From the NCBI RefSeq assembly GCF_000959525.1, contig NZ_CP009832.1, positions 558,001 through 622,000 on the forward strand: a stretch of 64,000 nt of DNA, read 5' to 3'. The notes below the pieces were generated by a model. That model was not told the origin of the DNA. It made no database searches and was given only the letters and a program-made list of their open reading frames with translations. The DNA is from Burkholderia multivorans ATCC BAA-247. GTDB taxonomy: Bacteria; Pseudomonadota; Gammaproteobacteria; Burkholderiales; Burkholderiaceae. Positions within the stretch are counted from its first letter, which is position 1. Every line of letters begins with the position of its first letter. Shown here piece by piece: positions 23,337-58,902 of this stretch. The position numbers were made by a program, and so were the translations under genes.

Positions 23337-24728
23337 ATGAAGGAAAGCAAGACAGGCCTTGGCACCGGCCTGAAGCAGCGGCACGTGACGATGATGTCCA
23401 TTGCGGGCGTGATCGGCGCGGGCTTGTTCGTCGGTTCCGGCCACGCGATCGCGGAAGCCGGTCCGGCATCGATCCTCGCGTATGCGATCGCGGGCGTGCT
23501 CGTCGTGCTGGTGATGCGCATGCTCGGCGAAATGGCCGTCGCGCATCCGGACAGCGGCTCGTTTTCTACCTATGCCGACCGCGCGATCGGTCACTGGGCA
23601 GGCTTCACGATCGGCTGGCTGTACTGGTGGTTCTGGGTGCTCGTGATCCCGATCGAGGCGACGGCCGCCGCGACCATTCTCAATGCGTGGTTCCCGGGCA
23701 TCGCGACGTGGATGTTCGCGCTCGGCATCACGCTGCTGCTGACCATCACGAATCTGTTCTCGGTCAAGAACTACGGCGAATTCGAATTCTGGTTCGCGCT
23801 GATCAAGGTCGTCGCGATCGTCGTGTTCTTGTGTGTCGGCGCTGCGGCGATCGTCGGCATCGTGCCGGCGCCGGCCGTGTCGGGCGTGTCGAACCTGTTC
23901 GCGCATCACGGCTTCATGCCGAACGGCGCCGGTGCGGTGCTCGCGGCGATGTTGACGACGATGTTCTCGTTCCTCGGCACCGAGATCGTGACGATCGCGG
24001 CCGCCGAATCCGACAACCCGCAACGCCAGATCGTGCGTGCGACGAATTCGGTGATCTGGCGCATCACGCTGTTCTATCTCGGCTCGATCCTCGTCGTGGC
24101 GGCGATCGTGCCGTGGAACGACCCGCTGCTGCCGGCGCACGGCTCGTATCAGCGTGCGATGGAGCTGATCGGCGTGCCGAACGCGAAGGCGATCATCGAC
24201 GTGATCGTGCTCGTGTCGGTTGCGAGCTGCCTGAATTCGGCGCTGTACACGGCGTCACGGATGCTGTTCTCGCTGTCGAAGCGCAAGGATGCGCCCGCGT
24301 TCCTGCATCGCACCGATGCGACCGGCACGCCGCGCGCGGCCGTGCTCGCCTCGACCGCGTTCGGCTTCGTGACCGTGATCGCGAACTACCTGATGCCCGA
24401 GCAGGTGTTCGGCTTCCTGCTCGCGACCTCGGGCGCGATCGCGCTGCTCGTGTATCTCGTAATCGCGATCTCGCAGCTGCGGATGCGCAGGACGCTCGAA
24501 GCGACTGGCGCGGATCTGCCGCTGCGGATGTGGATGTTCCCGTGGCTCACGTGGGCCGTGATCCTGTTCATCTGCGGCACGCTGACCGTGATGCTCGTGA
24601 GCGAGGAACACCGGATGGAAGTCGGTGCGACGGCCGTGCTGGCGCTGTTCGTGCTGCTTGCGTCGTGGCTGAACAAGCGAGGTCGCGATGCGCGGGTGGG
24701 GGAGGGGCGGCGCGTGTCGGCGACGTAA
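23337..24728 (+). CDS. Amino acid permease, GabP-like
   Basis: APC-family amino acid transporter of 463 residues with 12 predicted helices. The N-terminus (GLKQRHVTMMSIAGVIGAGLFVGSG) and the MRMLGEMAVAHPDSGSFSTYAD segment match the AAT subfamily, closest in my reading to 4-aminobutyrate (GabP) transporters; FSFLGTEIVTIAAAES near residue 215 agrees with that group. It imports its substrate with protons. GGAG precedes ATG 23337; the open frame upstream is not coding. Substrate assignment is by family resemblance only. Confidence 0.85.
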   Translation: MKESKTGLGTGLKQRHVTMMSIAGVIGAGLFVGSGHAIAEAGPASILAYAIAGVLVVLVMRMLGEMAVAHPDSGSFSTYADRAIGHWAGFTIGWLYWWFWVLVIPIEATAAATILNAWFPGIATWMFALGITLLLTITNLFSVKNYGEFEFWFALIKVVAIVVFLCVGAAAIVGIVPAPAVSGVSNLFAHHGFMPNGAGAVLAAMLTTMFSFLGTEIVTIAAAESDNPQRQIVRATNSVIWRITLFYLGSILVVAAIVPWNDPLLPAHGSYQRAMELIGVPNAKAIIDVIVLVSVASCLNSALYTASRMLFSLSKRKDAPAFLHRTDATGTPRAAVLASTAFGFVTVIANYLMPEQVFGFLLATSGAIALLVYLVIAISQLRMRRTLEATGADLPLRMWMFPWLTWAVILFICGTLTVMLVSEEHRMEVGATAVLALFVLLASWLNKRGRDARVGEGRRVSAT

Positions 24729-24872
24729 CTCGCGTGAACCGGACGGGCGCGGCTGCTGCGCCCGTTCGCGCTGTGCGGCGTAGGCGCGGTGGAATCGAGG
24801 CGTGGCGTCGGGGAGGGCGGGCGTTGGCGGCACACCGCACGCGGCAGCGCGATGAATATCGGCGATAGCGCG

Positions 24873-26027
24873 TTACGCGAGAGAAAACTCCAGAATATCC
24901 TGGCGACAGAGATCCGTGACCAGATCGCGGATGCGGTCCGCATCGGTGTTGGCAAAACCAGAAATCAGTGTTCCGAGGCTGATGCCGGGGCGCTCGACGA
25001 TCAGTCGAATCAGCGTTGCGCCTTGATCGTCCAGATTGACCTTGGTGCCGTTGGCGATCACATAGCGATCGTCGCGGCCAGGCGGCCGATAAGCGCTCAA
25101 GCGAATTCTCGATTCATCTGGGATTGCCGACACCGCTGGGTTCCCCAATGTCTCGAGTGCGAGATCTGTCTCGATACGTATGGCCCCAGTCCTATCGTCG
25201 AGAAAGCGGCGGTAATTCTCTCGGGTGCAAATGAAGTCCTCGAATTGTTGCCCTATCGACGCCAGGACGTTTTTATCGTTCTCCCAGTCACTCAACGAAC
25301 GTCTGGCGTCGAGCAAGTGCGGCATTCGGTTTATCGCCCAACTCAAGTAATCAATGACATAGGCCGGGAAAGTTCCGAATGCAAGATGGAAGGTCGCTTC
25401 ACCGACGGGAAGCGGGTTGTGCCACCAGCCTCGTGGTAGATAGAGCAGATCACCGGCCTCCAACATGACGTCCATATACGGGGTGTCAGGACACGGATAC
25501 AGGCCCTCGTAATCCTTGCTTTGTTGCATGTAAAGCGGTGCCTCGAGTGAGGGCTCGTACAGGACCCACCGCTTGCGCCCGATGAGTTGTATTGCGAAAA
25601 CGTCACGTGTATCCCAATGGCAGCGGAACGAGTCGCGCTCACCGAATGCCAGGTAGGCGCTACTGACCACCTGTCTGCCGGTGAATTCGATGAGTTGTCT
25701 CGATAACTGATTGACCTTCGGTTCAGTGGCGATTTTGTTTGCGATCAATGTCGCGCCCTTGCGCAAATAATCGTAGACAACTGGCTTGATCAGGCGATGG
25801 CGAAGCGTGCCGATGTCCCACCAGCTTTCGATGTATTCGCTCTTTGGTCGGATGCCGTCGAAAGTCAGCTTGAAATCGTCGGAGGCTACGTTGCTGCGTT
25901 CGAAGATTTCATTTACGTCCCGCCAGGAGAAGTTGCGAAGCGATACGGCTCCTTTCATAAGCAAGGGGCGCTTTTCCTGGTAATCGAGTGCGAAGTCTTT
26001 AGGGGAGACGCTGAACGAAATGCTCAT
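24873..26027 (-). CDS. JmjC-domain (ribosomal-oxygenase-like) dioxygenase
   Basis: A 384-residue cupin/JmjC protein with the plan of bacterial ribosomal oxygenases (YcfD/RoxA). The iron site HxD...H is complete: His137-Trp-Asp139 in CHWDTRDVFAIQL and His203 in PRGWWHNPLP; IGRKRWVLYEP follows as in that family. About residues 310-384 form a winged-helix-like tail (RYVIANGTKVNLDDQGATLI) like that of YcfD. Such enzymes hydroxylate side chains (Arg in ribosomal protein L16) using Fe(II), 2-oxoglutarate and oxygen. Here it lies 66 bases after a bacteriocin-like peptide gene on the same strand and has much lower G+C than the chromosome, so I infer it modifies that peptide. No strong ribosome-binding site is seen. 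Confidence 0.82.
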   Translation of the reverse strand: MSISFSVSPKDFALDYQEKRPLLMKGAVSLRNFSWRDVNEIFERSNVASDDFKLTFDGIRPKSEYIESWWDIGTLRHRLIKPVVYDYLRKGATLIANKIATEPKVNQLSRQLIEFTGRQVVSSAYLAFGERDSFRCHWDTRDVFAIQLIGRKRWVLYEPSLEAPLYMQQSKDYEGLYPCPDTPYMDVMLEAGDLLYLPRGWWHNPLPVGEATFHLAFGTFPAYVIDYLSWAINRMPHLLDARRSLSDWENDKNVLASIGQQFEDFICTRENYRRFLDDRTGAIRIETDLALETLGNPAVSAIPDESRIRLSAYRPPGRDDRYVIANGTKVNLDDQGATLIRLIVERPGISLGTLISGFANTDADRIRDLVTDLCRQDILEFSLA

Positions 26028-26093
26028 CGGAACGATTTGATGTTTGGGCTGGTTTCGGGTTCGGTTGGGGAAGGTGATTTAGTTGTAGTTGGT

Positions 26094-26414
26094 TCATGGC
26101 GCGTTGTAGTTGGTGCCCGCCGAGTTGGTCGCATTTTCCAAGAAACCAGCGGCCATTCCACTATAAAATCCAAGCTGACCATTGAGAATGGTCATTGCAC
26201 CGGCTTGCATGAGTGTGGGGGTTGCTGGGCCGGTAAAAAAGCCAAGCGTGGCCCCGGCAAGTATCGCTGAAGCGAGACCGGTGGGGCTCGCTTGTCCGGT
26301 GACCGATGCTTGCCCCAAGTAAATGGCCCCCCCTCCGACACCGCCAAGCGCGGCACCGATTGGCCCTACGGCGCCAGAGACTACCTTCAGTTCTCGAATT
26401 GATAGTTCGCGCAT
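26094..26414 (-). CDS. Bacteriocin-like precursor with double-glycine-type leader
   Basis: A 106-residue peptide. The first 15 residues, MRELSIRELKVVSGA, form a leader like those of class II microcins and bacteriocins, with Gly-Ala at positions -2 and -1 of the expected cut by a C39-peptidase ABC exporter. The core of about 91 residues is Gly/Ala-rich and hydrophobic, has several GxxxG-type spacings (ALGGVGGGAIYLG) and ends in NSAGTNYNAP. No Cys is present. I chose the ATG at 26414 because GGAG lies 7 bases upstream; the frame could open 8 residues earlier. It follows the small membrane protein by 25 bases and precedes the JmjC gene. No exporter is in the window. Confidence 0.72.
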   Translation of the reverse strand: MRELSIRELKVVSGAVGPIGAALGGVGGGAIYLGQASVTGQASPTGLASAILAGATLGFFTGPATPTLMQAGAMTILNGQLGFYSGMAAGFLENATNSAGTNYNAP

Positions 26415-26439
26415 TTCAATTCTCCGAAAAACCGTCATG

Positions 26440-26685
26440 TCAGGGATGTTTGGTAAGTAGTGATTTTGCGATGTTTCCTAAAATTACGGATAAAAATATT
26501 AGGATCATCCAGGGGTTTACTTTTGTTTTTATGATGAACGTCGATATTATTTTGAATAGCCAATACAGGACAATATGGATGGAAATGATGAGTGCGCATC
26601 CAATGAAGAAGTCGATGAAGAAAGCGTCGACTGAACCGGGGGTGAATTTTATGCCGAGAATCTCGGCGTGTGGTTCATTTTTCAT
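26440..26685 (-). CDS. Small membrane protein, candidate immunity protein
   Basis: An 81-residue protein with two long hydrophobic stretches (about 21-46 and 57-76) separated by a short basic loop (IIKTKVN), a polar N-terminus and a basic C-terminus. I do not recognise a family. Size, topology and place directly before the bacteriocin-like gene on the same strand resemble bacteriocin immunity proteins; that role is inference. Its base composition is AT-rich, unlike the chromosome. Confidence 0.6.
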   Translation of the reverse strand: MKNEPHAEILGIKFTPGSVDAFFIDFFIGCALIISIHIVLYWLFKIISTFIIKTKVNPWMILIFLSVILGNIAKSLLTKHP

Positions 26686-27154
26686 GGAGTGATTGATCCT
26701 TGGATTGATGAGGTGCCGAGTGCCTACGGGAAGTGATGGGGGCAGTATTGTGTGCGATCAGATGCTTGTATATAGAACAAATACCAATTTTTATAAATCT
26801 GCGTCGGAAAATGTCTGAAGTCGTAGCTCGATGACGATCGCTGTTTTTTGTTGGAAGTGTGCTGAACGAATTTTCGGGCTGTATCCGTCCGGCGCCATTC
26901 AATTGATCCATCGGTTCGAGTCGGTCTACGGACAGCCGGTGGGCAACGGCTTTGCGATCGGACCAGGACGGAGAAACCAGTCGCCGCATCCGTCGAGCAA
27001 CAATTCCAAGTAAAGGCAGACCAAAAAAGCAAACTGTCGTCGCACCCTCCGCGATTCGTTCTCGCGAGTAAATAGACGATCAACAGATCGGCTATTTGTA
27101 ACCGACATAGTTTCATTTATCGTTCGTCGACCTCATCTCTGAAGGAGTACGACC
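26686..27154. other. AT-rich non-coding stretch between bacteriocin-like locus and MBL gene
   Basis: No recognisable gene. Several short frames of 60-130 codons exist on both strands but none shows a known motif or good start signals. The left half (26740-26860) is the most AT-rich and probably carries the promoter of the minus-strand peptide locus. GAAGGAG at 27141-27147 is the ribosome-binding site of the next gene. Confidence 0.5.
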
Positions 27155-28366
27155 ATGTCGGTACGTCACCTGGTTTCATCCGTACTGGCGGCGAGCGCGC
27201 TGCTCGGCGCGGCATCGTCGAGCATTGCCGGCCCGCTGGCCGTGGACGTCTACAATCCGGGCGCGAAGAGCATCTTTCCGGTGTCGTCGGAGATCGTGTC
27301 GGGCAAGACCGAAGCGATCCTGATCGACGCGCAGTTCCAGCGCAACGACGCGCAGACGCTCGTGAACCGGATCAAGGCGACGGGCAAGACGTTGAAGGCC
27401 GTCTACGTCAGCCATAGCGATCCGGACTACTACTTCGGGCTCGACACGATCCACGCGGCGTTCCCGGACGCGAAGATCGTCGCGACGCCGCAGACGGTCG
27501 CCGCAATCGAAGCGAGCAAGGACGGCAAGCTCGCGTACTGGCGGCCGATCCTGAAGGACAACGCGCCGGCGTCGATCGTCGTGCCGCGGCCGCTCGACGG
27601 CGACACGCTGAGCGTCGACGGCGAGAAGCTGCGCATCGTCGGGCTCGACGGCCCGACGCCGGACCGCACGTTCGTGTGGATTCCGTCGGAGCGCACGGTG
27701 GTGGGCGGAATTCCGGTCGCGGCGAACATCCATGTGTGGATGGCCGATACGCAGACCCCGCTGTCGCGCGCGAACTGGCTCGCGACGCTCGACCGGATCG
27801 ATGCGCTGAAGCCGGTGCGCGTCGTACCGGGCCACTTCCTGCCGAACGCGGACGGCAGCCGGCCGTTCACGACCGGCGTCGCGTTTACGCGCGCCTATGT
27901 GAAGGCGTTCGATCAGGAGGCCGCGCGCGCACGCGATTCGTCGGCGCTGATCGCCGCGATGGAGGCGCGCTATCCGACGCTAGGGGCGAAATCGTCGCTC
28001 GAACTGAGCGCGAAGGTCGCGAAGGGCGAGATGCAGTGGCCTGCGCCGCAGCCGTTTCCGGCAATCGGCAAGGTCGCGCGCGTGGCGTTCGGCGACACGG
28101 TGTTCGACCTGCACTTCAAGGACGACAAGACGATGTCGTTCATCGGCACGGCAGGCCAATTCAAGGGCGTGACCGATACCGTGCAATACACGGCGCACGA
28201 GATTCGGCCGCAGGTGTACATGGTGTACTGGCACGAGCCGTCGACCGGTTCGAACGTCGTGCACGTCGAGGATTTCGCGCGCGGCACGGTGAACACGAAC
28301 ATCGCGACGAAAGACGGGCAGTTTCTCCACATGTCCGGCACGATCGCGATCGTCGGCGGCGAGTAA
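27155..28366 (+). CDS. Exported MBL-fold protein fused to a MoaF-like domain
   Basis: A 403-residue protein with a signal peptide (about residues 1-26), a metallo-beta-lactamase fold (about 35-250) and a C-terminal MoaF-like lipocalin domain (about 295-400). The usual metal motif HxHxDH reads SHSDPDYYFGL (residues 86-96): the second His is Asp and the DH pair is Asp-Tyr, so the standard dinuclear zinc site cannot form. VVPGHFLPN keeps a later His. Reaction unknown; it may hydrolyse with a different metal set or have lost hydrolase activity. A strong ribosome-binding site precedes it. Confidence 0.75.
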   Translation: MSVRHLVSSVLAASALLGAASSSIAGPLAVDVYNPGAKSIFPVSSEIVSGKTEAILIDAQFQRNDAQTLVNRIKATGKTLKAVYVSHSDPDYYFGLDTIHAAFPDAKIVATPQTVAAIEASKDGKLAYWRPILKDNAPASIVVPRPLDGDTLSVDGEKLRIVGLDGPTPDRTFVWIPSERTVVGGIPVAANIHVWMADTQTPLSRANWLATLDRIDALKPVRVVPGHFLPNADGSRPFTTGVAFTRAYVKAFDQEAARARDSSALIAAMEARYPTLGAKSSLELSAKVAKGEMQWPAPQPFPAIGKVARVAFGDTVFDLHFKDDKTMSFIGTAGQFKGVTDTVQYTAHEIRPQVYMVYWHEPSTGSNVVHVEDFARGTVNTNIATKDGQFLHMSGTIAIVGGE

Positions 28367-50908: not shown

Positions 50909-51041
50909 CACGCCTCTTTCGCGCTAACGGAAACGCGGCGTGAAAGGGGAAGCGAAGTTGGACGTGTGCTGCAGCATAGAGCGCCCGGCCGACGAAGGAA
51001 GAAGAACCCCGCAGTCGCAACGATGTAGTGAAAAAAGTTGT

Positions 51042-51070
51042 TGACGAACTGCGAAACAGTGTTCATAATC
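51042..51070 (+). promoter_or_regulatory. Main rRNA promoter
   Basis: TTGACG (51042-51047) and CATAAT (51065-51070) with exactly 17 bases between them, preceded by the A-rich GTGAAAAAAG, an UP-like element. It lies about 245 bases before the 16S gene. Confidence 0.8.
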
Positions 51071-51130
51071 TCGCTTCTCTGCTGCTGACAACGCAGCGCT
51101 GCTGAGCAAGACGATCTGCTCGCAGATATG

Positions 51131-51165
51131 TTCTTTAAAAACTAACAGCCGATAAGTGTGGGCGC
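51131..51165 (+). promoter_or_regulatory. Leader boxA and 16S processing stem, left arm
   Basis: TTCTTTAAAA (51131-51140) is a boxA antitermination site. CAGCCGATAAGTGTGGGCGC (51146-51165) pairs with 52873-52892 behind the 16S gene, allowing two G-U pairs, and forms the RNase III stem. Confidence 0.8.
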
Positions 51166-51318
51166 TTGATGTGAGCGAGACCTGATCTTCGGATCGGGAT
51201 AGCAAAAGTATCAAGAGTCTCACACTAAAGTAAGTCAGGTTTATGAAGCAATTCATATGACCTGTCAGCTTTGAGTGAGCGACCGGTTCGAGAGAACCGA
51301 AAACAGTAACAGGTTTGA

Positions 51319-52850
<1,532 letters not shown>

Positions 52851-52872
52851 CAGAGCTATCTCGCGAAGTTGA

Positions 52873-52892
52873 GCGCTCACGCTTATCGGCTG
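52873..52892 (+). other. 16S processing stem, right arm
   Basis: GCGCTCACGCTTATCGGCTG is complementary to 51146-51165 in front of the 16S gene; together they give the long stalk cut by RNase III. Confidence 0.8.
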
Positions 52893-52910
52893 TAATCAAG
52901 ACAGACTCAG

Positions 52911-52987
52911 GGGTCTGTAGCTCAGTCGGTTAGAGCACCGTCTTGATAAGGCGGGGGTCGTTGGTTCGAATCCAACCAGACCCACCA
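52911..52987 (+). tRNA. ileT: tRNA-Ile (GAU)
   Basis: A 77-base cloverleaf with GGGTCTG/CAGACCC acceptor arms, anticodon GAT in CTTGATAAG, GGTTCGAATCC in the T arm and an encoded CCA end. It is the first tRNA of the 16S-23S spacer. Confidence 0.97.
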
Positions 52988-53025
52988 AGTTGTCTGGCGA
53001 GAAGAAACCTGAGTGGTCTCTGTAT

Positions 53026-53101
53026 GGGGGCATAGCTCAGCTGGGAGAGCACCTGCTTTGCAAGCAGGGGGTCGTCGGTTCGATCCCGTCTGCCTCCACC
53101 A
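53026..53101 (+). tRNA. alaT: tRNA-Ala (UGC)
   Basis: A 76-base cloverleaf with GGGGGCA/TGCCTCC acceptor arms, anticodon TGC in CTTTGCAAG, GGTTCGATCCC in the T arm and an encoded CCA end. Second tRNA of the spacer. Confidence 0.97.
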
Positions 53102-53200
53102 CAATCTTCAATGCGAAGTGCTTGGTTCGAAAGCGAACCGAGGATTTGGCATTGGCGATTGAGCCAGTCAGAGTGATGCAGGAAACTGTATCGGCTGTCG

Positions 53201-53210
53201 TTCTTTAACA
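53201..53210 (+). promoter_or_regulatory. Spacer boxA
   Basis: TTCTTTAACA matches boxA, the site that loads the rRNA antitermination complex again ahead of the 23S gene. It lies 100 bases after tRNA-Ala. The remaining spacer to 53446 holds no gene. Confidence 0.75.
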
Positions 53211-53433
53211 ATCAGGAAGAAGTAAGTAATTTGGATAGCGGAAGCGTCTTATGAGATGGACGTGGAAACTATCCGGGTTGTGATTGTATCGATGTATCTC
53301 AAGATGATTCGAACTTCATTGTTCGGCTCAATTTGGAATACGGCACACACGTAGTGTGGGCTCCGCGTAAGTGCTAAAGCACTGACGCTGAGCGACACGC
53401 GAGAACTCAACCTGTAACGACTGTCGACGAGAC

Positions 53434-53446
53434 AGACTCGTTATAG

Positions 53447-53453
<7 letters not shown>
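53434..53453 (+). other. 23S processing stem, left arm
   Basis: AGACTCGTTATAGGGTCAAG pairs with 56319-56338 (one mismatch-like G-U/A-C position each side) and forms the stalk from which 23S is cut. Confidence 0.75.
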
Positions 53454-56326
<2,873 letters not shown>

Positions 56327-56477
56327 TATAACAAGTCTGCCTTGTAGATCGGCGCCGTGCGACAGCACCGGCTGCGATCCAAAGCGACACGTTGGATTCT
56401 CGAGTGCGATACGCACAACCCAAAATTACTGCTTCTTCCCGATTGGTTGCGCTGCGAAGCAACGCAACAACCCTCTT

Positions 56478-56592
56478 TGCCTGATGACCATAGCGAGTCG
56501 GTCCCACCCCTTCCCATCCCGAACAGGACCGTGAAACGACTCTACGCCGATGATAGTGCGGATTCCCGTGTGAAAGTAGGTAATCGTCAGGC
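56478..56592 (+). rRNA. rrf: 5S ribosomal RNA
   Basis: About 115 bases beginning TGCCTGATGACC and ending GTCAGGCT, with complementary ends and the conserved GATGATAGTGCGG loop. It lies about 150 bases after the 23S gene. Confidence 0.93.
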
Positions 56593-56602
56593 TCCCTAAG
56601 CC

Positions 56603-56634
56603 AAAAACCCCCGCCTGATCAGGCGGGGGTTTTT
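56603..56634 (+). terminator. rRNA operon terminator
   Basis: A 32-base perfect palindrome: AAAAACCCCCGCCT, then GATC, then AGGCGGGGGTTTTT. The stem is followed by T5 on both strands, so it works in either direction. Confidence 0.95.
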
Positions 56635-56826
56635 GCATTTGTGGCGCCGGAAATGCGCTGTCGGCCCGAGCGCCGGCCAAATGCGCCGCTGCGATCTCCG
56701 ATTCTTCTCCTCCGACCGGCCCGCCTAGCCCCATCTTCAAATAAAGCCCGCGACCTGTACGGAATGAGCGCTTTATCCGGCAGGTCCACGTAAAATTTGC
56801 GAATCCCCATCTTCGCACCCACAACA

Positions 56827-58902
56827 ATGAACGCCGCCACCCACGTTGCTCGGGCCGTCTGCCCGCATGATTGTCCGGATACGTGCGCCATGCGCGTGAC
56901 TGTCGAGAACGGAAGGGCGATCAAAGTCGCAGGCGACCCCGACCATCCGCCGACGCAAGGCGTCCTCTGCACGAAGGTCAGCCGATATGCGGAGCGTGTT
57001 CATCATCCGGACCGTCTTACCGTGCCGCTGAAGCGCATCGGCGCGAAAGGCGAAGGGCGCTTCGCGCCGATCAGTTGGGACGATGCGTTCGACGAAATTG
57101 GTCGCCGTTTGGGGGACATTGCGACGCGCGCGCCCGAAGCGATCGTGCCGTACAGCTATGCGGGAACGATGGGTCTCGTGCAGGGCGAAGGCATCGCACA
57201 GCGCTTCTTCCACAAGATCGGCGCGTCCCGCCTCGAGCGGACGATCTGCGCGGCGGCCGGCGCCGCCGGCCTGCGCTTCACTTATGGCGCCAGCGTCGGG
57301 ATGCATCTCGAGCATTTCGAGGAAAGCGAACTGATCCTGATCTGGGGCGCCAATCCGATCGCATCGAGCCTGCATTTCTGGACCCGCGCGCAGGAAGCCA
57401 AGCGGCGTGGCGCGCGGCTCGTCGCGATCGATCCGTATCGGTCGCTGACCGCCGAAAAGTGCCACCAGCACATCGCGCTGAAGCCCGGCACCGACGGGGC
57501 ATTCGCGCTCGGCATGATGCACGTGCTGATCACCGAGAATCTGCTCGATCACGATTACATCGCCGACCATACGCTCGGATTCGACGCACTCAAGGCGCGC
57601 GCGCTGTCGTATCCGCCGGAGCGCGTCGCGCAGATTTGCGGTATCGATGCGTCGGAACTGATCGATCTTGCCCGCCGTTACGGCGCGACGCGCAAGGCAG
57701 CGATCCGCCTTAATTACGGTATGCAGCGCGTGCGCGGCGGCGGCAATGCGGTGCGCGCGATCGCCAGCCTGCCCGCGCTGACCGGTGCCTGGCGCGACCG
57801 CGCGGGCGGCCTGCTGCTGTCGTCGTCGGAATTCGCGCCAATCAATCAGCCCGCGTTGTTGCGCCCGGATCTGATCCCCGGCTGGCCGCACAAGCTGCCG
57901 CGCATCATCAACATGAATGCGATCGGCGATGCGCTGCTGCACCCGGGCGATGCGGCGTTCGGTCCGAAAATCGAGGCGGTGATCGTCTACAACTCGAATC
58001 CCGTTGCCGTCGCACCCGACTCGTCGAAGGTCGCGGCCGGGTTCGCACGCGAAGACCTGTTCACCGTCGTTCTCGAGCATTTCAAAACGGATACCGTCGA
58101 TTTCGCCGATATTGTGCTGCCGGCGACGACGCAGCTCGAGCACCTGGACGTCCACAAATCGTACGGGCACACCTACGTGATGGCGAACCTGCCGGCCATT
58201 CCGCCCGTGGGCGAGGCACGGCCGAACACGGAAATCTTCCGCGGCATCGCGCGCAGCATGGGGATCGACGAGCCGGCGCTCTATCACTCCGACGAGGAAG
58301 TCGCGCGCGCGGCGCTTCGATGGGACGACCCTTCGCTCGACAGCGATTGGGACACGCTGAAGCGCGAAGGTTGGCTGAAGCTGAAATTGCCCGATGCGCC
58401 GTTTGCAAACGGCGGGTTCCGCACGCCGTCCGGCAAGTGCGAGTTCTACAGCGCGCGGCTCGAGCAAATGGGTCTGGATCCGGTGCCCGACTATCTGCCG
58501 CCTTTCGAGTCGGCCGAAGCGGCGCCGGAGCTCGCGGCCCGTTACCCGCTCGCGATGATTTCGCCGCCGGCGCGCCACTTCCTGAACAGCACGTTCGTCA
58601 ACGTCGAGAGCCTGCGCAGCACGGAAGGGCAGCCGCACCTCGACATGCACCCGGCGGACGCCGCATCGCGCGGCATTGCGGACGGCGATCTCGTGCGCAT
58701 CTTCAACGACCGCGGATCGATGCAGGCCGTCGCGAGAGTGACGGACCGCGCGCGTGCGGGGCTCGTCGTCGGCTTGTCGATCTGGTGGAAGAAGCTGTCG
58801 CCCGACGGCCGCAACGCGAACGAGGTCACGAGCCAGGCGCTGACCGATCTCGGCAATTCGGCGACGTTCTACGACTGTCTGGTCGAAGTCGAACCCGCCT
58901 GA
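56827..58902 (+). CDS. Molybdopterin-dependent oxidoreductase
   Basis: A 691-residue protein of the DMSO reductase/formate dehydrogenase superfamily. The N-terminal CPHDCPDTC...GVLCTK carries the Cys for a [4Fe-4S] cluster; molybdopterin segments follow (LIWGANPIASSLHFW, KPGTDGAFALGMMHVL, VVYNSNPVAV-like) and a C-terminal MoCo-dinucleotide-binding domain (HPADAASRGIADGDLVRIFNDRG). No signal peptide or Tat motif, so it is cytoplasmic. The substrate is not known; no partner subunit lies adjacent. An in-frame TTG at 56797 is a poorer start. Confidence 0.88.
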   Translation: MNAATHVARAVCPHDCPDTCAMRVTVENGRAIKVAGDPDHPPTQGVLCTKVSRYAERVHHPDRLTVPLKRIGAKGEGRFAPISWDDAFDEIGRRLGDIATRAPEAIVPYSYAGTMGLVQGEGIAQRFFHKIGASRLERTICAAAGAAGLRFTYGASVGMHLEHFEESELILIWGANPIASSLHFWTRAQEAKRRGARLVAIDPYRSLTAEKCHQHIALKPGTDGAFALGMMHVLITENLLDHDYIADHTLGFDALKARALSYPPERVAQICGIDASELIDLARRYGATRKAAIRLNYGMQRVRGGGNAVRAIASLPALTGAWRDRAGGLLLSSSEFAPINQPALLRPDLIPGWPHKLPRIINMNAIGDALLHPGDAAFGPKIEAVIVYNSNPVAVAPDSSKVAAGFAREDLFTVVLEHFKTDTVDFADIVLPATTQLEHLDVHKSYGHTYVMANLPAIPPVGEARPNTEIFRGIARSMGIDEPALYHSDEEVARAALRWDDPSLDSDWDTLKREGWLKLKLPDAPFANGGFRTPSGKCEFYSARLEQMGLDPVPDYLPPFESAEAAPELAARYPLAMISPPARHFLNSTFVNVESLRSTEGQPHLDMHPADAASRGIADGDLVRIFNDRGSMQAVARVTDRARAGLVVGLSIWWKKLSPDGRNANEVTSQALTDLGNSATFYDCLVEVEPA

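What the first reader, a model, noticed from the sequence alone, without database searches (positions are those of the whole stretch)
24873..26685. Possible hydroxylated bacteriocin locus: small membrane protein, Gly-Ala leader peptide and JmjC oxygenase
Three minus-strand genes lie in a row with gaps of 25 and 66 bases, in a patch of lower G+C than the chromosome. The peptide has a class II microcin/bacteriocin leader (MRELSIRELKVVSGA), the enzyme has a complete HxD...H iron site and the build of ribosomal oxygenases, and the first gene has the size and topology of an immunity protein. JmjC oxygenases are known to hydroxylate ribosomal proteins; I am not aware of an established system where one serves a double-glycine-leader bacteriocin. 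If the pairing is conserved this would be a new RiPP class. No exporter is in the window, so export would rely on a C39-type ABC transporter elsewhere.
Basis: partly seen in the sequence, partly recalled or inferred. Interest (0 to 1): 0.85.

Follow-up and report, generated by a model that had tools for sequence, protein, structure and literature searches.

The report
Microcin paired with tail-modifying JmjC oxygenase
A small gene cassette in a Burkholderia-type genome encodes a probable bacteria-killing peptide next to an oxygenase that may chemically alter the peptide's tail; the pairing recurs in other bacteria, usually with the same kind of tail, which gives biochemists a precise site to test.

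Summary
In detail: an 81-aa two-helix ORF, a 106-aa double-glycine-type peptide and a 384-aa JmjC protein, same strand, gaps 25 and 66 bases, low G+C; a relative shows the site without the cassette. New here: peptide cores are mostly unrelated, yet 15 of 15 intact clade-A enzyme loci have an ORF with a C-terminal G-x-x-Tyr tail (mostly G-T/N-N/D-Y, usually twice), even on a 234-aa protein without leader; sister enzymes go with Asp/Asn-Gly tails. The split Moraxella enzyme gene has no tailed ORF. Best reading: the enzyme hydroxylates or otherwise oxidises the tail before export. No chemistry is shown. Prior art: Acinetobacter Mcc17978 (cupin-like McaB, called immunity) and E. coli Mcc1229 (MctC), both using catecholate-siderophore receptors. 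So: new variant of a known kind, not a proven new RiPP class. In this strain no exporter is near and the genome's only C39 exporter is interrupted by an insertion element, so production may be lost.

The parts
26440..26685 (-). 81-aa ORF with two predicted membrane helices; likely immunity protein
   Evidence: small membrane ORFs beside the peptide in related loci; weak similarity to the ORF of L056 (E 0.002, 20 residues)
26094..26414 (-). 106-aa double-glycine-type (Gly-Ala) microcin precursor
   Evidence: core alike in L010, L046, L056, L057, L058
26370..26414 (-). 15-residue leader MRELSIRELKVVSGA
   Evidence: leader of this type in 18 other JmjC loci, two of them atypical
26097..26120 (-). 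C-terminal tail AGTNYNAP, proposed site of modification
   Evidence: motif shared by unrelated substrates beside clade-A JmjC enzymes
26079..26093 (-). remains of a second tail copy in the same frame beyond the TGA stop (described only)
   Evidence: sequence; 21-nt tandem repeat D3
24873..26027 (-). 384-aa JmjC (PF08007) protein, predicted Fe(II)/2-oxoglutarate oxygenase, proposed tail-modifying enzyme
25611..25619 (-). HxD iron ligands His137 and Asp139
   Evidence: invariant in alignments A1 and A3
25419..25421 (-). third iron ligand His203
   Evidence: invariant in alignments A1 and A3
24888..25091 (-). C-terminal ROXA-like winged-helix region, candidate substrate-binding domain
   Evidence: window E 0.046, below the cut-off; 5 of 15 clade-A members match PF20514, best E 3.6e-13
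24727..27089 (.). acquired cassette; boundaries approximate
   Evidence: site without it in G300; low G+C

Best explanation
The cassette is a reduced, horizontally acquired class II microcin locus of a family in which a dedicated JmjC Fe(II)/2-oxoglutarate oxygenase oxidises the microcin's C-terminal tail. Proposed steps: the precursor is made with a 15-residue Gly-Ala leader; the enzyme binds it (its winged-helix end is a candidate reader of leader or tail; inferred) and hydroxylates the tail AGTNY, most likely at the Asn (Asp in relatives), less likely at the Tyr (inferred); a C39 peptidase ABC exporter with a HlyD adaptor cuts after the leader and exports the peptide (genes in cis in 13 of 23 loci, absent here); the two-helix protein protects the producer (inferred). 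Shown here: gene layout, its recurrence, conserved catalytic residues, tail conservation across unrelated cores, the match of tail type to enzyme clade. Not shown: any chemistry, activity or export.
For: GG-leader ORF beside the JmjC gene in 19 of 23 distinct loci found by enzyme similarity alone. All 15 intact clade-A loci have an ORF with G-x-[NDSGV]-Y in its last 16 residues within 3.5 kb on the same strand; over the 22 loci scanned such ORFs are 19 of 599 near and same-strand, 2 of 715 near on the other strand, 8 of 1520 further away (Fisher p 2.7e-7; the motif was defined after seeing the data). Of 31 motif copies in 17 tails, 23 have N or D before the Tyr. Among 23 substrates stripped of leader and last 20 residues (L017 and L012 left out; the leader of L057 was not stripped) only 17 of 253 pairs are alike, 15 of them within the window's own group of six. 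L060 has 234-aa proteins without leader ending in the same tandem tail. The enzyme tree puts tail-A loci (15) and tail-B loci (6) on two sides of a 100/100 branch, 0 of 500 shuffles as clustered. The GG peptide of L023, with no JmjC partner, and McbC, beside a split one, lack the tail. C39 domain confirmed in all 13 cis exporters. Precedent: BipG, a JmjC protein, hydroxylates a RiPP precursor (PMC12707348, passages); mctC is needed for Mcc1229 activity and its authors allow that it modifies the microcin (PMC8853679, passages).
Against: No chemistry measured. In Acinetobacter mcaB alone protects cells and is called immunity (PMC10333792). L017's tail has no Asn or Asp (GGRYSGTVYA), which speaks for Tyr or another chemistry. 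Moraxella L013, not in the tree because its enzyme gene is in two pieces, has no ORF with the tail (0 of 58). In the window no exporter is near, the only C39 exporter of the genome is interrupted, and a stop cuts off a second tail copy, so this copy may be decaying. No Fur box upstream (best 10 of 19, all shuffles as good). AlphaFold model poor (mean pLDDT 48.6). Neighbouring genes are inherited together, so the clade-tail match is not fully independent; L047 sits on a long branch and its place is unsure.
Confidence: 0.68

Rival explanations
1. The JmjC/cupin protein is chiefly the immunity factor, by binding or oxidising the microcin or its target inside the producer, as proposed for McaB.
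For: mcaB alone protected Acinetobacter (PMC10333792, passages).
Against: Separate small membrane ORFs lie beside the peptide (66-81 aa with two predicted helices in 7 of 12 loci examined), one of 76 aa in the Acinetobacter plasmid locus L011; iron site invariant in 15 of 15 clade-A enzymes; Mcc1229 needs mctC for activity while mctDE give immunity.
Confidence: 0.12
2. The enzyme acts on the tail but by another 2-oxoglutarate-dependent oxidation: a cross-link or macrocycle between Tyr and a neighbour, desaturation, or backbone cleavage.
For: Gly and Tyr are the residues present in all 17 tails compared (the search motif itself asks for them); a paper on 2-oxoglutarate-dependent macrocyclisation in RiPPs exists (title only, in a reference list; not held).
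Against: Asp/Asn are the residues common to tail types A and B; the closest solved relatives are hydroxylases, some also named demethylases.
Confidence: 0.15
3. Housekeeping ribosomal oxygenase that sits by chance beside a peptide gene.
For: Nearest solved relatives are NO66, MINA53 and the L16 arginine hydroxylase.
Against: Linkage in 19 of 23 loci; present in few genomes (7 of 299 of the family, own included); the same genome has another, distant JmjC relative elsewhere (L002).
Confidence: 0.03
4. In this strain the cassette is a non-functional remnant (compatible with the best explanation for the family).
For: No exporter in cis, the only C39 exporter interrupted, second tail copy lost behind a stop.
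Against: All three reading frames are open and the iron site is intact; L046 and L058, with complete operons, also end in a single tail copy; the interrupted exporter still matches the whole Pfam ABC_tran model; another ABC system could export.
Confidence: 0.4

Closest known systems
Mcc17978 system mcaABCD, Acinetobacter baumannii ATCC 17978 (PMC10333792)
   Same: GA-leader microcin beside a cupin-like gene, HlyD and C39-type exporter; same gene set as plasmid locus L011, whose enzyme is 39% identical to the window's
   Different: authors treat McaB as immunity and leave modification open; the window lacks HlyD, exporter and a recognisable Fur box.
Mcc1229 operon mctABC, E. coli (PMC8853679; plasmid type of L014)
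   Same: microcin-like protein, ABC transporter and JmjC/cupin protein in one operon; the JmjC protein is required for activity
   Different: enzyme only 25% identical, outside both tail clades; 232-aa substrate with Cys-rich end; ABC without C39 domain
McbABCI bacteriocin, Moraxella catarrhalis pLQ510 (PMC2761928)
   Same: a JmjC relative (48% over residues 5-253) lies upstream of HlyD, C39 exporter, GG bacteriocin and immunity genes
   Different: the JmjC gene is in two pieces; no ORF there has the tail; the words cupin, JmjC and hydroxylase do not occur in the paper
BipG, biphenomycin RiPP pathway (PMC12707348)
   Same: JmjC protein hydroxylating a ribosomal precursor peptide
   Different: acts on ornithine within a small macrocyclic RiPP; the cluster listed there has an MFS transporter and no C39 exporter
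ROXA / YcfD, NO66, MINA53 ribosomal oxygenases
   Same: JmjC domain, HxD...H iron site, ROXA-like winged helix (weak in the window's own protein)
   Different: act on ribosomal proteins (recall); no peptide partner

Membership tests
Class II microcin / double-glycine bacteriocin | short precursor with leader ending GG/GA | tested here: met
   MRELSIRELKVVSGA
Class II microcin / double-glycine bacteriocin | cognate C39 peptidase ABC exporter and HlyD adaptor | tested here: not met
   none in the window; one C39 exporter elsewhere in the genome with its own peptide, interrupted; in cis in 13 of 23 loci
Class II microcin / double-glycine bacteriocin | immunity gene beside the precursor | tested here: inconclusive
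   81-aa two-helix ORF; function untested
Class II microcin / double-glycine bacteriocin | antibacterial activity | not testable with these tools
   needs a bioassay
JmjC Fe(II)/2-oxoglutarate oxygenase | JmjC domain with HxD...H triad | tested here: met
JmjC Fe(II)/2-oxoglutarate oxygenase | catalysis dependent on iron and 2-oxoglutarate | not testable with these tools
   no assay
ROXA-type ribosomal oxygenase | C-terminal ROXA-like winged helix | tested here: inconclusive
   window below cut-off; 5 of 15 clade members match
RiPP with RRE-bearing enzyme | RRE fold (three strands, then three helices) | tested here: inconclusive
   low-confidence model shows two strands then four helices at 322-383; fold search could not run
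RiPP | post-translational modification of the peptide | not testable with these tools
   only inferred from tail conservation
Mcc17978-type (mca) system | microcin + cupin-like + HlyD + C39 exporter operon | tested here: not met
   window has the first two only

The most novel reading that the evidence does not exclude
The JmjC enzymes turn a genetically encoded C-terminal tail into an iron-binding, siderophore-like group (beta-hydroxy-Asp/Asn, or a catechol on Tyr) that lets the microcin enter through catecholate-siderophore receptors: a one-enzyme route to siderophore microcins, with portable tails that can sit on unrelated toxins and, in a Neisseria-like genome, look swappable as cassettes. 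Support is indirect: Mcc17978 enters through Fiu/PiuA and Mcc1229 through CirA (PMC10333792, PMC8853679, passages). Against: no iron-regulation site was found upstream in the window.
Probability: 0.2. Interest if true: 0.87.

Novelty: new variant of a known kind. Interest (0 to 1): 0.62.

Why it matters
It would give a substrate and a site to a group of 'cupin-like' microcin genes whose role is open (immunity or modification), and a short, testable tail motif. If the tail becomes iron-binding, it would explain why two cupin-linked microcins use catecholate-siderophore receptors without the glycosyl-enterobactin machinery of class IIb microcins (that machinery is recalled, not looked up). The motif is also a search handle for further exported antibacterial proteins.

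Tried and rejected
Ribosomal oxygenase reading: rejected on linkage and distribution. Fur or iron-starvation boxes upstream: none in the window (10 of 19, all shuffles as good); of 20 upstream regions only L018 stands out (14 of 19, reached by 1.5% of shuffles; L046 and L023 by 6 and 6.5%), and the published Mcc1229 site was recovered in L014 (13 of 19, 15% of shuffles); so iron control is not shown for this family here. NCBIfam: no family at E 0.01 for any of 15 clade-A enzymes, none at E 1 for the three window proteins. Viral contigs: one distant relative, 27%. Literature searches for a JmjC/cupin enzyme modifying a GG microcin or bacteriocin found no report of hydroxylation among the listings and passages seen (open-licence PMC texts only). 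PMC11798529 (Neisseria bacteriocin-like peptides) was searched for cupin, JmjC, hydroxylase and dioxygenase: no occurrence.

Rows dropped before the 19-of-23 count: L066 and L067 (insertion-broken copies of the Acinetobacter locus), L028 (truncated enzyme merged with a peptide remnant), L029-L031 (matches near 1e-30, short flanks; no leader or tail ORF in the regex check), L014, L015, L059 (distant), L002, L003 (unrelated JmjC of the same genome), L041 (viral, distant; surroundings listed only), and plasmid records that were listed but not opened. Not GG-positive among the 23: L020 (peptide in broken pieces), L047 and L060 (longer proteins without leader), L013 (split enzyme; McbC, 4 kb away, has a leader but no tail). 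Counted although imperfect: L012 (peptide broken into two frames), L017 (leader-like stretch late in a 147-aa ORF), L018 (leader ending SAGN). The tree leaves out L013 (split) and L021 (contig end). The regex first used missed peptides that were found by eye; the tail regex was set after seeing tails.

Full report
What is there. The window holds three minus-strand genes: an 81-aa ORF with two predicted membrane helices (26440-26685), a 106-aa peptide precursor (26094-26414) and a 384-aa JmjC protein (24873-26027), with gaps of 25 and 66 bases and G+C of 0.50-0.54 where the surroundings have 0.63-0.71. The genome is Burkholderia-like: 6.32 Mb in 3 contigs, and the neighbouring metallo-beta-lactamase-fold gene is 85% identical to one of B. 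pyrrocinia; the species was not determined. In the same-genus genome G300 the two flanks lie 191 bases apart (238814-240140 and 240332-241541 on its contig 9, equal to window 23400-24726 and 27090-28300), so about 2.3 kb was gained here or lost there; in none of the 12 other same-genus genomes does a listed match cover the cassette (list cut), and with the low G+C I read it as a gain.

The enzyme. Pfam JmjC_2 at E 1e-27; closest solved structures NO66, MINA53 and the L16 arginine hydroxylase. His137, Asp139 and His203, and Lys152 (a 2-oxoglutarate ligand by recall), are invariant in the 15 clade-A members, window included. The C-terminal region matches the ROXA-like winged helix in 5 of 15 members and falls below the cut-off in the window's own protein. 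The AlphaFold model is too poor to add much (mean pLDDT 48.6).

Does the linkage recur? Relatives were sought by the enzyme alone: 7 of 299 genomes of the family at E 1e-20 (own genome included), 1 locus by pattern scan of the species collection, 118 plasmid records, most of them distant, 7 of 65 genomes of the genus at 1e-25, three of these weak or truncated, 2 of 398 of the phylum sample, 5 of 398 of the genus of P. entomophila, 7 of 399 of the order, 2 of 390 of the other order; each count includes the centre genome, and draws overlap. The system is rare and patchy. I examined 23 distinct close loci (window included). A GG-leader ORF lies beside the enzyme in 19, counting one broken (L012) and two atypical ones (L017, L018); one more has a broken peptide (L020), two have longer proteins instead (L047, L060), and in Moraxella pLQ510 the enzyme gene is in two pieces. 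A C39 exporter, confirmed by Pfam, lies in the fetched stretch in 13 of 23 (L011, L012, L013, L017, L019, L040, L046, L056, L057, L058, L061, L064, L065). L021, L062 and L063 show a HlyD gene only (L021 ends at a contig end); L047 and L060 have ABC transporters without a C39 domain; the window, L010, L016 and L020 show neither, L018 only a distant HlyD at the edge of the stretch. In L046, L056, L057, L058 and L065 the order is HlyD, small membrane ORF and peptide (either order), JmjC, exporter.

The tail. The last residues of the peptides are alike where the rest is not. Clade-A tails: window AGTNYNAP; L010 AGTNYNNAAGTNYN; L016 GVDYCGCSYQ; L011 AGNDYCEDGGNY; L040 SGANYQDGSNYQK; L056 AGTDYAGTGYQ; L057 AGTNYGAGGTNYN; L062 TGNGYSDGCDYC; L065 SGTSYNEAGTNYN; L046 and L058 AGTNYNR; L017 GGRYSGTVYA; L061 three peptides, SGNDY...SGNNYGG, SGNNYDGTNY and DGNNYDGTNY; L012's last piece ends GTDYC. 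Of 253 pairs among 23 substrates stripped of leader and last 20 residues, 17 are similar, 15 of them within the window's group (window, L010, L046, L056, L057, L058). In L060 two 234-aa proteins with no leader (the one scanned has no Pfam match) end in DGTNYADGTGYQ next to the enzyme. ORFs with the motif: 19 of 599 near on the same strand, 2 of 715 near on the other, 8 of 1520 far, Fisher p 2.7e-7, with the warning that the motif was set after inspection and that at least one far hit belongs to the L061 array. Tail B (Asp/Asn-Gly rich, for example TNDDGDG, DDGNDGDGY, GADGDGE, GNDADGQ, NGQDQD) goes with six other enzymes in the tree, which separates the two groups on one 100/100 branch (15 and 6 loci, 0 of 500 shuffles as clustered; L047's long branch makes its place unsure). 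Against the pattern: none of 58 ORFs of Moraxella L013 has tail A. The GG peptide of L023, with no JmjC partner, and McbC of L013 lack it.

How it probably works. The simplest account is that the tail is what the enzyme acts on and that the core is free to change. JmjC enzymes are known to hydroxylate Asn, Asp, His, Arg or Lys (recall); Asn/Asp precede the Tyr in 23 of 31 copies and are also the shared residues of tail B, so beta-hydroxylation of Asn/Asp is my first choice. Against it: L017's tail has neither, and every tail has Gly and Tyr, so Tyr oxidation or a cross-link stays open. Leader cleavage and export by the C39 transporter follow from class II microcin biology (PMC10333792, passages). 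The 66-81-aa ORF with two predicted helices beside the peptide in 7 of 12 loci examined is the likely immunity protein.

State of this copy. The only C39 exporter of the genome (contig 3 at 3377179; the cassette is at about 584000) has its own GG peptide, a possible immunity gene and HlyD. Its reading frame runs into an element with a transposase-type ORF (L023 12177-13211; rve and HTH domains), and a stretch resembling the last conserved part of an ABC domain lies beyond it; what remains still matches the Pfam ABC_tran model to its end, so loss of function is likely but not shown. Behind the window peptide's TGA stop the same frame carries remains of a second tail copy. So the cassette may be inactive here, though two relatives with complete operons (L046, L058) also end in one tail copy.

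What is known. Mcc17978 of A. baumannii is a GA-leader microcin encoded with a cupin-like gene, HlyD and a C39-type exporter; it enters through Fiu/PiuA, is induced by low iron, and mcaB alone protects, which its authors read as immunity; modification is left open (PMC10333792, passages). Its published Fur site is absent from L011. Mcc1229 needs the cupin gene mctC, enters through CirA and TonB, is Fur-controlled, and has immunity genes mctDE; its authors allow that MctC modifies the microcin (PMC8853679, passages). The plasmid of L014 is of that type: its cupin begins MNNLIKKEIIE, as does a primer of that paper for the gene after mctB, and the paper's Fur site was recovered upstream of its first gene. 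A 2025 survey of RiPP recognition elements notes RRE-like domains fused to PF08007 in fish and algae and RiPP-like contexts of bacterial relatives (PMC12710340, passages and two of three parts of the reference list). BipG is a JmjC hydroxylase of a RiPP precursor (PMC12707348, passages); a related cupin-like protein PbsQ and the JmjC protein BpmG are mentioned in PMC12257519 (passages). None of the passages I read describes the shared tail or hydroxylation of a GG microcin; the searches are listed in Tried and rejected and cover open-licence papers only.

Judgement. The new element is the portable tail and its match to the enzyme clade, which makes a precise experiment possible. The bolder reading, an enzymatically made siderophore-like tail, rests on two published receptors and on chemistry by analogy; I give it 0.2.

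Noticed in passing
L061:8714-15133: Genome G1373 (Neisseria-like by its enzyme): one full JmjC gene followed by two partial copies (residues about 202-382), each followed by a small membrane ORF, and at least three tailed peptides: looks like a cassette array for swapping microcins together with the enzyme's C-terminal half.
   Followed up: partly
L060:9827-12622: Two 234-aa proteins (one scanned, no Pfam match) with nearly identical C-terminal stretches and the GTNY tail, each with a 205-aa partner (one scanned, weak DUF5625): a possible tailed effector and immunity pair beside a JmjC enzyme.
   Followed up: partly
L047:10840-11454: 204-aa protein that looks lysozyme-like to the eye (no Pfam match), ending NGQDQD, beside a JmjC enzyme and a type 1 secretion adaptor in P. 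entomophila.
   Followed up: partly
L011:6456-6686: Unannotated 76-aa ORF with two predicted helices just upstream of the Acinetobacter microcin; a candidate immunity gene not in the annotation.
   Followed up: no
L014 and L059: Distant JmjC + ABC transporter + about 232-aa protein with Cys-rich end (Mcc1229 type) also in a Pseudomonas genome (G998).
   Followed up: partly
L023:7846-13406: Second GG-peptide locus of this genome with the only C39 exporter, interrupted by an insertion element near its 3' end.
   Followed up: partly
window 51000-57000: Low G+C stretch with tRNA-Ile and tRNA-Ala, most likely a ribosomal RNA operon.
   Followed up: partly
L028:1456-2666: Truncated JmjC gene merged with a remnant of a tail-B peptide in G102, followed by a gene that by eye resembles the CAAX-protease-like gene of L018.
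   Followed up: no
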